This document shows, in pieces, positions 2,542 through 9,138 of a DNA stretch of 9,138 bases. Every line of letters begins with the position of its first letter. The stretch's first letter is position 1. The notes below the pieces were generated by a model that worked only from the letters and a program-made list of their open reading frames with translations, searched no databases and was not told where the DNA came from. This stretch comes from Bacillota bacterium (lineage in GTDB: Bacteria > Bacillota_A > Clostridia > Lachnospirales > WQUN01), in contig WQTQ01000128.1 in assembly GCA_009786175.1 (NCBI GenBank), positions 1 through 9,138 on the forward strand, in the 5' to 3' direction. Position numbers and translations under genes: made by a program.

Positions 2542-2634
2542 ATGCGAACAACGTTTAAAGAGTTTACGGCTTTGTTACTGGCATTTGTATTAATAATTGG
2601 TACAATGACATTAACATTATCAGCATCAACTGCC
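2542..2634 (+). other. Signal peptide of the giant xylanase
   Basis: Residues 1-31. A short basic start (MRTTFK) is followed by a hydrophobic core (ALLLAFVLIIG, residues 10-20) and a small-residue region ending SASTA, with likely cleavage after Ala31 before YEP. No lipobox cysteine is present, so Sec export and signal peptidase I processing are expected. Confidence 0.8.
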
Positions 2635-8600: not shown

Positions 8601-9138
8601 CGGTTCATTTGCCAACAACATTCTGATGAATAATGCCCACGATGTTCATTACTTCGGCTTCTTTAGCGGAGGGGGAACCGGCACGGCATTGGCAAACGCA
8701 GTAGGCGGCGAATACACAACAATAGTAGCCGGCGGCGGATATTTCCAAAACTACGCATTCCTAAATACCATAGAAAATTACGCACCGGGCGTAGTTGGTG
8801 TTTACCGTGTACCGGGCGGGCATGACTTGCACGCATGGGCGCAGTTATTCACAATTATGGCAAGAGATTATTTGTGGACACCACAAGAATTGCAACTTCC
8901 GGTATTCAGTTTCGACATCTTTAACAACGGCGAAGGCGGCAGCCCAAGCAGGCCAAACCCAGGCTTAGCGGCGGCAGGCATAATCCGTATGTGGACACAG
9001 CTTGACGGCGTAAACACACCTGTTTACCTTGCGGCTGCAGACACCATCGAAGCCCTTGACCAAGACGGCGAGTGTGCAGAAGATTTTGTACGCGTAGGAC
9101 GTGTATGGCAAGACGGTACGGGCTGGTTGAACTACTTT
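2542..9138 (+). CDS. Giant secreted bifunctional xylanase/esterase (GH10-GH10-CE1), 3'-truncated
   Basis: One uninterrupted frame of 2199 codons that leaves the window without a stop. Predicted role: extracellular endo-1,4-beta-xylanase with an added carbohydrate-ester hydrolase. Module order by residue: signal peptide 1-31; module A 32-218; CBM22/CBM4_9-like 219-374; GH10-1 390-761; module B 771-941; GH10-2 955-1340; He_PIG Ig-like 1364-1447; module C 1455-1616; Ig-like 1621-1713; CBM48-like early-set 1722-1840; CE1 esterase 1878-2113; unidentified tail from about 2120. Typical single-GH10 clostridial xylanases such as XynY and XynZ are about half this length or less, and two GH10 domains in one chain is uncommon. 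The start at 2542 is chosen for AAAGGAG at good spacing and a compact signal peptide. In-frame ATGs at 2443 and 2431 remain possible. No dockerin, SLH or sortase signal is seen; any anchor would lie beyond the right edge. Confidence 0.93.
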   Translation, partial: MRTTFKEFTALLLAFVLIIGTMTLTLSASTAYEPSQELPPGVPIPVWNMADEIYDMADGSTFTQAGPLKNGGDATLTVRHNVVINEVHGWADLARTVTAVEVTRPAATDGLVLCPEYLGLEPGEIYIWEITGQRTGANHRAAFGTVNSAGVTTMNGAAVTPAPNNHPTRPGFFSLRRTITHTDAIEAYRFYGVAATGANPAAAAGDFVVYEITVQRANSFVLFQTDFSDGTTGIVTGGHSAGFSGIVPDTQDPTNNVFRAEIPPGIGGNWWGFNIDGGDLQGPTGATYRATFVVRRAAGPAVNARLRLATQTGGVVSNWDIAGHSQQLGTDWTTYTIQPFALEPGVGVAAFQLIRNSETWSGTMELDSVIIEVIEAPAEEVVGRWEPNDTLPSLAQRYSGFFTIGNILDSVPSGQLAEMFVYQYNSITAENAMKPVSLSPARGVFTFDHADAFVDWALSHDIEVIGHALLWHSQSARWLTNNDDGTPATRADARANLEKFITEVAGHFSGRVAAWDVANEVFTNNGGSGAWHANMRTNSPWWIAYNNGRDAAAGEQPWDFVYDAFVFARLADPYTTLIYNDFNCNSLPKARNMRDMTNELNAKWATDTDNNYQAGDFTGTHVEIVEAYLAAGGRLLIETLGLQSHHNAGTLINHPNPEQNWVVRNALEIYAQIPGITLAITELDITNHAGFAYDPVHQENQYRELFELLLEFSDIIDRVTFWGTNDVQSWRGPQNPTLFARPTSYNPYFRAKPAFHTVAALPPTQQPQTGVIYSLAEDALFQALDRGPVTNSDFYANPWLAVSGGPTLTIIENPSNPDKHSILVENRAQAFYAVDVLFAHAMIPNGTYSISVSGRLAAPHTANRTMQIARPDANWSAFANSNVTIPAGQVNWTINHTFTREVLVNDFFSGAQPGARIRAGGTGAAQLQWGFIIDSIEVIRLTVGDGVFTPPGFDLNERSLAGTFADRFYVGNIWSTNARMNLHNTQQGFMHHYNAVTAENAHKVDHVLAAAANAWNFTWGTADYIVNWAEANDLAMVGHTLAWHSQSRPWLTHTVVGGQAIPVTRAQAIYNMRRFISTVAGRYSGRMYSWDVLNEAIRSWMPYYGEDGWAANPDWRAHLRVPTNTQTRWYHAFANGADEAAGECGTDFIYYAFKFARMYDPFAILYYNDYNEDAPGKREAIAHMIEDLNNRWAHDLINNHEAVPEGEEYTGRLLIEAMGMQSHYHIRGWTTSLENIEAAIQRYIGLGLRVSITELDITIWGQGTTGTIEENGYTVEQLLGYQAERYAALFRLYMQYADDIGRVTFWGKADNQSWRASGLPLLFDALLHTKSAFHAVMDAFDDVGPATNISRPVVTNTAMHSDAVARPGLNFVTEPDEPFAVQFLASQNNNAPLLWSVEGNLPPGLRMIARTGAIIGTPEVEGVFHFNVIAENTLYSSEPVQVTITVGEPPQQNMVIWSLQTCETIQALEHGEVTGFGAGVPLVRAGPPIMTIVENPADTSLNAVQLSGRSANWHGVDILFSNLLGRGMRPDIHEYTLTIIARRLTPETGNVQLQIARNEGPWDSFAMSNTTTAAGETFTIEWLVDADLIGGSNIRIQSPNTTMSFVIDEIKVVRTGEYVGLPVISLYPNGQPGVTSTEIEIRLSHAHQGPALTLGNVTLDAGLTGAVATSLTRVSDTVYTLAVSGVNTMGRVIVSIDSPYVSDRSASAVLFHSSITEVPLGPTVLRDLNSPTGYTVQFVLENHTASVVALQGELMMQHYTNRPPFNVANPMVPYTPHEFRPGLFPSRAAGVYSQRMVEIGEGLFFAELPLPGGAMKYWHLVDGVRLPDAHNMPHLSNYHRPRLNINQAYSVIFVPFDAERQDPRNNRDIERPRDNPAERGQVVSVRFDSDFPVVQTPNSHPGMLPYVGDAFGCLLIYLPPGHDPNRAEPYPVIYLSHGHWDGHIDWINGGAVPEIMDNLIYLGYIEPAIVVSINNSRHNLGFVTANARLDLFNSIMPTVEYLFNASSNANQRAVAGYSMGGSFANNILMNNAHDVHYFGFFSGGGTGTALANAVGGEYTTIVAGGGYFQNYAFLNTIENYAPGVVGVYRVPGGHDLHAWAQLFTIMARDYLWTPQELQLPVFSFDIFNNGEGGSPSRPNPGLAAAGIIRMWTQLDGVNTPVYLAAADTIEALDQDGECAEDFVRVGRVWQDGTGWLNYF
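2635..3195 (+). other. N-terminal beta-rich module A (sugar-binding-like)
   Basis: Residues 32-218. I do not recognise the family with certainty. The opening (VPIPVWNMADEIYDMADG), the middle LEPGEIYIWEITGQ and the closing VVYEITVQR line up by pattern with modules B and C, which open VIYSLAED / VIWSLQTC and close IDSIEVIR / IDEIKVVR. A distant relative of those carbohydrate-binding-like beta-sandwiches is therefore likely. No catalytic motif is seen. Confidence 0.45.
3196..3663 (+). other. CBM22/CBM4_9-like xylan-binding module
   Basis: Residues 219-374. The pattern fits the CBM4_9 superfamily: an opening DFSDGTTG, FRAEIPPG, a YRATFVVRR strand, LGTDWTTYTIQPF, and a closing METLD-type strand (here MELDSVIIEV). 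CBM22 modules usually sit directly N-terminal to GH10 xylanases and bind xylan, and that is the position here (16 residues before GH10-1). Exact CAZy family assignment by eye is uncertain. Confidence 0.7.
3709..4824 (+). other. GH10 endo-xylanase domain 1
   Basis: Residues 390-761, the usual size for a GH10 (beta/alpha)8 barrel. Conserved GH10 blocks in order: NSITAENAMKP (425-435); GHALLWHSQ (466-474); WDVANEV with acid/base Glu520; YNDFN (579-583); LGLQSHHN (640-647); AITELDIT with nucleophile Glu682; and VTFWGTNDVQSWR (719-731). Both catalytic glutamates and the subsite residues Lys434, His467, Trp471 and His645 are present, so activity on beta-1,4-xylan with retention of configuration is expected. 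The acid/base motif has Ala518 where WDVVNE is common, which should be harmless. Confidence 0.95.
4852..5364 (+). other. Sugar-binding-like module B between the two xylanases
   Basis: Residues 771-941. Its nearest visible relative is module C of the same protein: IIENPSNPDKHSILVENR and AVDVLFAH here correspond to IVENPADTSLNAVQLSGR and GVDILFSN there. Both share a MQIARPDANW / LQIARNEGPW block and an IDSIEVIR / IDEIKVVR end. The layout (opening strand, Y-S-I-S-V-S-G strand, aromatic-rich QIA block, closing D-I-x-V strand) fits a galactose-binding-like CBM such as CBM22/CBM4_9. Ligand binding is inferred. Confidence 0.6.
5404..6561 (+). other. GH10 endo-xylanase domain 2
   Basis: Residues 955-1340. 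GH10 blocks: NAVTAENAHK (994-1003); GHTLAWHSQ (1038-1046); WDVLNEA with acid/base Glu1095; YNDYN (1167-1171); MGMQSHYH (1218-1225); SITELDIT with nucleophile Glu1254; and VTFWGKADNQSWR (1303-1315). Both catalytic residues are intact. Sequence is clearly diverged from domain 1, with a longer segment after the acid/base (about 1097-1145, rich in Trp, Tyr and charged residues) and after the nucleophile (about 1259-1275). This is an old duplication or independent acquisition rather than a recent copy, and it may give different subsite preference. Confidence 0.95.
6631..6882 (+). other. He_PIG-type putative Ig domain
   Basis: Residues 1364-1447. It shows the family pattern: a strand with FLASQNNNAPLLWSVEG, then NLPPGLRM, TGAIIGTPE, GVFHFNVIAEN and a closing VQVTITVG. 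Such domains act as spacers or protein-protein/carbohydrate contacts in bacterial surface proteins. Here it separates the xylanase half from the esterase half. Confidence 0.8.
6904..7389 (+). other. Sugar-binding-like module C
   Basis: Residues 1455-1616. Paralogue of module B (see that entry for the matching blocks), opening VIWSLQTCE and closing VIDEIKVVRTG. The preceding PPQQN stretch is a short linker. Probably a CBM22/CBM4_9-like carbohydrate-binding module; the exact family is unverified. Confidence 0.6.
7402..7680 (+). other. Second Ig-like spacer domain
   Basis: Residues 1621-1713. The beta-rich pattern with VTLDAGLTGAVATSLTRVSD, VYTLAVSGV, GRVIVSIDSPYV and a closing ASAVLF strand resembles bacterial Ig-like repeats found in clostridial surface proteins. 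No enzyme motif is visible; a spacer role is inferred. Confidence 0.5.
7705..8061 (+). other. CBM48-like early-set domain preceding the esterase
   Basis: Residues 1722-1840. The strand pattern YTVQFVLENHTASVVALQGE, then GLFFAELPLPGG, KYWHLVDGV and LPDAHNMP matches the N-terminal early-set (CBM48-like) domain of many CE1 esterases, where the core reads Y-x-F-x-VDG and then a DPxN turn. In those enzymes the domain packs against the catalytic domain and may help place the substrate. Confidence 0.65.
8173..8880 (+). other. CE1-type feruloyl/acetyl-xylan esterase domain, atypical acid residue
   Basis: Residues 1878-2113, alpha/beta-hydrolase fold. Seen: an N-terminal LLIYLPPGHDP strand (1914-1924), YPVIYLSHGHWDGH (1930-1943) with the HG oxyanion-hole strand, AVAGYSMGGSF with nucleophile Ser2018 in GYSMG, and VPGGHDLHAW with catalytic His2094. 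In CE1 enzymes the acid is an Asp in a CG-x-x-D-type turn about 30 residues before the His. Here the equivalent stretch reads IVAGGGYFQN (2061-2070) and has no acidic residue. Esterase activity removing ferulate or acetate from xylan is the expected role, but the missing acid leaves activity open. Confidence 0.75.
8899..9138 (+). other. Unidentified C-terminal segment, cut by the window edge
   Basis: Residues 2120-2199. A Gly/Pro/Ser linker (GEGGSPSRPNPG, from 2130) leads into AAAGIIRMWTQLDGVN, an acidic DTIEALDQDGECAEDF and VWQDGTGWLNYF. It looks like the first part of another folded module. I do not recognise it, and its remainder and the protein's anchor or dockerin, if any, are outside the window. 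Confidence 0.5.

What the first reader, a model, noticed from the sequence alone, without database searches (positions are those of the whole stretch)
2542..9138. Two complete GH10 xylanases plus a CE1 esterase in one polypeptide longer than 2199 residues
Most clostridial xylanases carry one GH10; known combined enzymes such as XynY and XynZ pair a single GH10 with a single CE1. Here both GH10 domains keep both catalytic glutamates (520/682 and 1095/1254), are clearly diverged from each other, and are joined to an esterase by sugar-binding-like and Ig-like modules. The chain may be a non-cellulosomal way of keeping chain-cutting and side-group-removing activities together.
Basis: partly seen in the sequence, partly recalled or inferred. 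Interest (0 to 1): 0.7.

Follow-up and report, generated by a model that had tools for sequence, protein, structure and literature searches.

The report
Double xylanase-esterase ending in orphan module
The window really encodes one very long secreted enzyme with two xylan-cutting domains and an esterase, which is an unusual but not unprecedented fusion; its cut-off tail is a small unnamed protein module that about a hundred other, mostly unrelated secreted proteins of uncultured bacteria also carry, possibly a new way of attaching enzymes at the cell surface.

Summary
ORF 2542-9138 is one open frame with two GH10 domains (38% identical, all four catalytic Glu) and a CE1-like esterase that keeps Ser2018 and His2094. 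The fusion itself is only a new combination: 11 of 51 fetched GH10 proteins have two or three GH10s, and P0003 is already GH10-GH10-esterase.

The last 76 residues (8911-9138), where the contig stops, begin a ~110-residue module without a Pfam, NCBIfam or PDB match and with a confident all-beta, Ig-like predicted fold (pLDDT 97). 98 of 147 fetched proteins carry 209 copies, on unrelated cargo and mostly at chain ends. None of the 98 has an SLH label or a sortase-like tail; one has a dockerin. A separate 'hub' family carries 3-7 copies, and its members can end in a sortase-like tail, SLH repeats or a dockerin.

Best reading: an attachment module of a Bacillota lineage, probably from termite guts, that works like CBM37 of R. 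albus but is unrelated to the one CBM37 tested. Its ligand is unknown. Boldest reading: enzymes dock on surface hubs through the same fold, a cellulosome analogue without cohesin-dockerin contact.

The parts
2542..9138 (+). secreted multidomain chain, >=2199 residues, open at the right end
   Evidence: ribosome-binding site AAAGGAG before ATG 2542
2542..2625 (+). signal peptide (about residues 1-28)
   Evidence: MRTTFKEFTALLLAFVLIIGTMTLTLSASTA read by eye from the sequence; no signal-peptide predictor run
3187..3699 (+). CBM_4_9-like beta module (residues 216-386), below the curated cut-off
   Evidence: Pfam E 0.0097, 16.7 bits, cut-off 25.9
3709..4818 (+). GH10 domain 1 (residues 390-759), Glu520 and Glu682
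4924..5211 (+). CBM_4_9-like module (residues about 795-890)
   Evidence: Pfam best stretch 797-889; alone 17.8 bits, below the cut-off
5392..6558 (+). GH10 domain 2 (residues 951-1339), Glu1095 and Glu1254
6673..6879 (+). He_PIG Ig-like domain (residues 1378-1446)
   Evidence: 31.3 bits alone, cut-off 24
7033..7341 (+). third CBM_4_9-like stretch (residues about 1498-1600), below the cut-off
   Evidence: Pfam 15.7 bits
7693..8901 (+). esterase unit with its N-terminal extension (residues 1718-2120); CE1-like; Ser2018 at 8593-8595, His2094 at 8821-8823
   Evidence: Pfam PF00756, PDB CE1 matches, alignment with P0006 and P0015 domains, coordinates
8911..9138 (+). first 76 of 110 positions of the orphan terminal module ('FNNG module'); the contig ends inside it
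   Evidence: profile score 114.1 bits; best copies in P0038, P0041, P0043 and P0044 are 76-90% identical

Best explanation
The chain is a secreted xylan-degrading enzyme of an uncultured Bacillota bacterium, probably from a termite gut (inferred from where relatives of its terminal module occur; the window's source is not given). Two GH10 domains cut the xylan backbone, CBM-like modules hold the substrate, and the CE1-like domain removes ester side groups (shown: domains and residues; inferred: activities and co-operation). At its C-terminus it carries one or more copies (the number is cut off) of a lineage-restricted Ig-like attachment module, the FNNG module. This module is appended to many unrelated secreted proteins in the place where other Bacillota put SLH repeats, a dockerin or a sortase signal, and most likely holds the protein at the cell surface (inferred). 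The ligand is not known: either a glycan or a separately anchored hub protein that carries several such modules. The first two rivals are versions of this reading.
For: Domains and residues. Module: 98 of the 147 proteins fetched carry 209 copies. Of 100 carriers (these 98 plus the hubs P0148 and P0149), 39 end within 10 residues of the last copy (some, like the window, because the contig is cut), 49 have 11-280 residues left, 8 start within the first 120 residues (6 of them at residues 37-48, just behind the signal peptide), 4 are internal; only the 2 added hubs have a sortase-like tail. None of the 98 has an SLH label among its precomputed Pfam domains. Cargo is diverse: S8, S15, GH5, GH10 and UGSC-type proteins. 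Among 51 GH10 chains no chain has two end classes: SLH 19, CuAO_N1 7, module 5, LPxT 5, dockerin 3, none 12. In genome G002 the tail moves as a unit: L055 (S15), L056 (UGSC) and L057 (weak M6 match, below cut-off) have no BLASTP match between their cargo parts, yet tails 77-82% identical over 304 residues. Copy 3 is 69% identical between proteins, against 48% between copies within one protein. Fold: AF2 pLDDT 97.4, pTM 0.88. Positions N5, N6, G7, R26, W87 and I90 are invariant in 48 diverse copies.
Against: No ligand or localisation is shown. Some module proteins also have an anchor or docking part of their own: hubs with a sortase-like tail, SLH or dockerin, P0113 with cohesin and dockerin, and the client L061 with a partial SLH match over the cut-off (29.8 bits). 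So the module is not simply 'the anchor'. Two of seven genomes (G005, G006) show it in a single sortase-tailed protein only and in no client, though these are MAGs of unknown completeness. Six of seven genomes have SLH proteins and three of seven a cohesin match (two over the cut-off), so the module does not stand in for absent systems. An Ig-like spacer could also recur at chain ends. The esterase lacks an acid at the recalled position.
Confidence: 0.55

Rival explanations
1. The module is a carbohydrate-binding module, functionally like CBM37 of Ruminococcus albus: it binds plant or bacterial polysaccharides. Enzymes carry it at the end, and surface hubs with several copies act as adhesins.
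For: CBM37 is likewise lineage-restricted, appended to many GH, CE and non-catalytic proteins, sometimes in tandem, and is reported to attach enzymes to the cell (PMC4081043, PMC4300822, passages read). Conserved Trp and polar residues. Two sortase-tailed proteins with 2 and 7 copies.
Against: No sequence relation to the one CBM37 tested. Many carriers are proteases or UGSC-type proteins with no obvious use for a plant-glycan module, though CBM37 is found on non-catalytic proteins too.
Confidence: 0.33
2. Hub-client scaffold: modules on secreted enzymes pair with modules on a separately anchored hub protein, a multi-enzyme complex without cohesin-dockerin contact.
For: Nearly all clients have no other recognised anchor. 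Of 10 proteins found with the hub's core domain, 9 carry 3-5 modules, and hubs end in SLH (P0152), dockerin (P0153, P0156) or a sortase-like tail (P0149, 7 modules). Hub modules form their own subclass: for 27 of 33 the nearest relative is in another hub, against 3 of 217 client modules. In G002 a hub and 13 other module frames occur together; in G001 a hub and two further contigs with copies, not examined.
Against: Orthology of the hubs alone could explain the subclass. G005 and G006 have one sortase-tailed protein and no client copies. Several hubs have no recognised anchor, some because the contig is cut. No pairing was modelled or measured.
Confidence: 0.2
3. The module is only a structural spacer or stalk, as Ig-like repeats often are; the terminal position reflects domain shuffling.
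For: All-beta fold, weakly like Ig domains; tandem runs of 1-7 copies; other repeats such as Flg_new in some of the same chains.
Against: Mostly terminal placement, position-specific copies and six invariant residues across 48 diverse copies are more than a spacer needs.
Confidence: 0.15

Closest known systems
XynZ / XynY-type bifunctional xylanase-feruloyl esterase (NF041944)
   Same: GH10 and CE1-type esterase in one chain; the esterase matches XynZ esterase 1jjf, E 2.7e-17
   Different: two GH10s, no dockerin match in the part present; scores 323 bits against the NF041944 cut-off of 1200
P0003, uncharacterised 2334-aa protein
   Same: GH10, GH10, then an esterase; its second GH10 with the part before it is 67% identical to window residues 33-769
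   Different: esterase of the EstA_Ig / S9-like kind, CBM9 between the GH10s, no FNNG module
CBM37 system of Ruminococcus albus
   Same: lineage-restricted appended module on many secreted proteins, proposed as an alternative to dockerins and reported to attach enzymes to the cell
   Different: no sequence relation to the CBM37 tested; FNNG comes in ordered triplets in G002 and has a separate hub family
SLH repeats
   Same: terminal, often three copies (recalled) on unrelated exported proteins
   Different: SLH motif is 44 positions, FNNG about 110 and all-beta; both occur in 6 of 7 genomes
Cohesin-dockerin cellulosome
   Same: many clients plus multi-module anchored proteins
   Different: the same fold on both sides; no dockerin or cohesin match in the window chain; two hubs carry a dockerin themselves

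Membership tests
GH10 | Pfam PF00331 over cut-off, two catalytic Glu | tested here: met
   two domains, all four Glu present
CE1 esterase | esterase fold match and Ser-His-acid triad | tested here: inconclusive
   PF00756 36.1 bits, cut-off 22; CE1 structures, E down to 9.9e-19; Ser and His present, acid not found at the recalled place
Bifunctional xylanase/feruloyl esterase NF041944 | score over the curated cut-off | tested here: not met
   323.3 bits, cut-off 1200
SLH | PF00395 match | tested here: not met
   none in the window chain, E limit 0.1, nor in one module copy, E limit 10
Dockerin / cohesin | PF00404 or PF00963 match | tested here: not met
   none in the window chain or in one module copy; the true C-terminus is missing
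Sortase substrate | C-terminal LPxTG, membrane segment, positive tail | not testable with these tools
   the contig ends before the C-terminus
CBM37 | sequence homology to CBM37 | tested here: not met
   one presumed CBM37, the C-terminal 118 residues of an R. albus 7 pRUMAL02 xylanase (architecture taken from PMC4300822; the record itself does not label it): no hmmsearch match in that region, hhalign probability 0.1
CBM37 | binding to polysaccharide and to the cell surface | not testable with these tools
   needs protein
Type IX secretion C-terminal domain | fold match and host with type IX secretion | tested here: inconclusive

The most novel reading that the evidence does not exclude
Uncultured, probably termite-gut Bacillota have a multi-enzyme surface system built on one Ig-like module. 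Xylanases, cellulases, proteases and probable selenoproteins carry client copies at their ends and dock on hub proteins with 3-7 copies, which are themselves held by exchangeable sortase, SLH or dockerin ends. That would be an analogue of the cellulosome without cohesin-dockerin contact between enzyme and hub, and one that also takes non-carbohydrate enzymes. The window enzyme would be one of its xylan-degrading clients.
Probability: 0.2. Interest if true: 0.85.

Novelty: new variant of a known kind. Interest (0 to 1): 0.6.

Why it matters
[quoted passage not shown] A shared, unnamed terminal module on about a hundred secreted proteins from such bacteria would be one answer to how they hold their enzymes, and it gives a simple protein to express and test. 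It also bears on why contigs of these organisms break: at least 9 of the 36 module-bearing contigs in seven genomes begin or end inside a copy or within about 10 bases of one, and the window's own contig ends inside one. The double xylanase-esterase fusion alone would matter mainly to enzyme engineers.

Tried and rejected
Rejected: the double GH10 with an esterase as a unique kind of architecture. Rejected: a frameshift inside the chain (one open frame; both parts have relatives that align without a break). The far end inside the repeat is uncertain; the entry from unique sequence into the repeat should be real, since reads must span it (inference, not tested).

Breadth: genome-contig scan, 10 loci, all titled as Oscillospiraceae or Defluviitaleaceae MAGs (the two peptide patterns used were strict, so more may exist). 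2 of 394 genomes sampled from one order and 6 of 392 from the other match; five of these 8 were known, the other three are weak, partial matches (E 1e-11 to 6e-6).

AF2 of three copies (pLDDT 89.9, pTM 0.65) gave good single domains but no firm mutual arrangement, so nothing is concluded from it. Print: four motif strings of the module, 0 papers; module/termite/sortase terms, 0 papers; 'two GH10' variants, 1 paper.

Dropped rows and biases: 8 of the 57 proteins (no GH10) were left out, and P0096 and P0125 were added. These two were found because they carry the module, so the count of 5 is biased upward. In that call dockerin, SLH and CuAO come from precomputed Pfam labels; at least one chain counted as 'none' (P0045) looks dockerin-like by eye. 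The 51 come from my own local profile and need not be the same 51. One search used 24 and 48 of the 49 diverse copies; one search used 11 of the 17 triplets. In one search four loci already represented were skipped, and copies at 60 bits or less, or spanning under about 95 positions, were left out; one genome frame (L064) is also in the pool as P0140.
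Full report
The observation. From an ATG at 2542 with a good ribosome-binding site the frame stays open for 2199 residues to the last base. Pfam sees GH10 twice, an esterase, an Ig-like domain and weak CBM_4_9 matches. The two GH10s are 37.7% identical and have different closest relatives: the part with GH10-1 (residues 33-769) is 67% identical to P0003 and, over residues 21-762, 45% identical to P0030, a chain with a dockerin label; the part with GH10-2 (residues 771-1450) is 58% identical to P0002. The esterase unit matches solved CE1 enzymes and the tandem esterases P0006 (four copies) and P0015 (three copies). 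It keeps Ser2018 and His2094, but I see no acid at the place recalled from XynZ.

How unusual is the fusion? Of the 51 fetched proteins with a GH10 match to my local profile, 8 have two and 3 have three GH10s. P0003 has two GH10s and an esterase of another kind, and a review mentions a fungal CE15 protein with two GH10s (PMC10313548, one passage). Among the 147 proteins fetched, GH10 with this CE1 type was seen only in the window. So the fusion is a new combination of familiar parts.

Where the module sits. Of 100 carriers, 88 have it at or near the C-terminus, 8 within the first 120 residues (6 of them at residues 37-48), and 4 internally; 92 have a signal-peptide-like start (simple hydropathy). 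Some chains end in the module only because their contig is cut, the window's among them. Two carriers have a sortase-like tail, P0148 and P0149, both added from genome loci. None of the 98 others has an SLH label; P0113 has dockerin and cohesin labels. In G002 the subtilase L061 has a partial SLH match over the cut-off. Among 51 GH10 chains (49 and two added because they carry the module) the end types SLH 19, CuAO_N1 7, module 5, LPxT 5 and dockerin 3 never coincide; 12 have none. The module thus tends to take the place of known attachment devices.

One genome in detail. G002, a MAG titled Oscillospiraceae bacterium Emb289P1bin128, has 38 matches. 37 lie on the 14 frames examined and one partial copy at a contig end; nine frames have three copies, in one of them the first is degenerate. 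Between the nine, copy 3 is 69% and copy 2 61% identical at the same position (36 pairs each), against 48% for copy 1, 48% within a protein and 48% at different positions. So the last two copies are ordered, and the tail behaves as a unit. Of the 91 pairs of frames, 62 show no BLASTP match between the cargo parts; L055 (S15 peptidase), L056 (UGSC) and L057 (weak M6 match, below cut-off) still share tails 77-82% identical over 304 residues. The 50 such pairs with at least 200 aligned tail residues average 52%, the 29 pairs with related cargo 63%, so part of the likeness follows gene duplication and part does not.

Hubs. P0149 (genome G006) has 7 copies, a core domain I call FPG, and an LPQAG-membrane-KK end; the sortase-anchor models score just below or below their cut-offs (15.6 against 15.9 and 12.8 against 20 bits). 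P0148 (G005) has 2 copies and LPATG-membrane-KK, without a match to the FPG profile. A search with the FPG domain returned 10 proteins; 9 carry 3-5 modules (matches under 10 bits not counted), P0157 none. One has SLH (P0152), two a dockerin (P0153, P0156); the others show no anchor I recognise, some being cut. P0113 has a cohesin, a dockerin and two modules. Sortases are present in all seven genomes, SLH in six, cohesin matches in three, two of them over the cut-off. Hub modules resemble other hubs' modules (27 of 33) more than clients', which orthology alone could explain.

Interpretation. Clients mostly without another anchor and hubs with exchangeable anchors fit a client-hub system. They fit at least as well a CBM37-like glycan-binding module used both on enzymes and on surface adhesins. 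CBM37 of R. albus is the closest thing it works like (PMC4081043 and PMC4300822, passages), but the one presumed CBM37 that I could fetch is not related in sequence. Against the client-hub reading, G005 and G006 show one sortase-tailed protein and no clients, in MAGs of unknown completeness. I therefore commit only to 'terminal attachment module' as best explanation and give the scaffold reading a probability of 0.2.

Range. The genome-contig scan found 10 loci, all in MAGs titled Oscillospiraceae or Defluviitaleaceae. The sample codes Emb, Lab and Co I take from memory to be higher-termite guts. Within the orders of G002 and G004 the module is rare: 2 of 394 and 6 of 392 sampled genomes, the centres included. 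The window's own source is not given; its module is closest to proteins named from MAG FWC32. At least 9 of 36 module-bearing contigs start or end inside a copy or within about 10 bases of one, which probably explains why the window stops where it does.

Noticed in passing
L054, L060, L062, L063 (two genes), L066 (genome G002): Six of 14 module-bearing frames begin right after an in-frame TGA, with a signal-peptide-like stretch upstream in the same frame (seen for five; for one the fetched stretch is too short). A paralogue has Cys at that place (L065, GVADCALSAWW), another Ser (L056); a hairpin is predicted after each TGA; Pfam UGSC (PF24696) matches L056 and L065 over the cut-off and L060 below it; SelA is present: probable secreted selenoproteins.
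   Followed up: partly
P0006, P0015: Four and three tandem CE1-type esterases in one chain; P0006 ends in LPQTS, a membrane segment and KKEKAE.
   Followed up: no
P0113: Cohesin, two FNNG modules and a dockerin in one protein: a possible link to a true cellulosome.
   Followed up: no
P0005: GH10, Amidase_3 and four FNNG copies in one chain.
   Followed up: no
tails of P0038, P0065, P0066 and others: After the last module many carriers add one of a few recurring tails: FYL..SNTNRHVSVF, a Cys-rich linker, NPA.VEQGG..VVTTQGMPDGAWVDLNV, or VTFVV.AGAVGVYA.
   Followed up: no
window 2049-2094: Perfect 21-bp inverted repeat with a 4-base loop (-34.3 kcal/mol for the folded stretch), followed by TTTAAAATTGCTTTTTTG, between the upstream gene and the xylanase; a probable terminator although the pattern scan did not list it.
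   Followed up: partly
window 1-1999: PfkB sugar kinase (cut at the left end) overlapping a 383-aa protein without a Pfam match; a PDB match to a mannosephosphate isomerase at E 0.81 is not significant, but by its look (recalled) it could be a cupin-type sugar isomerase.
   Followed up: partly
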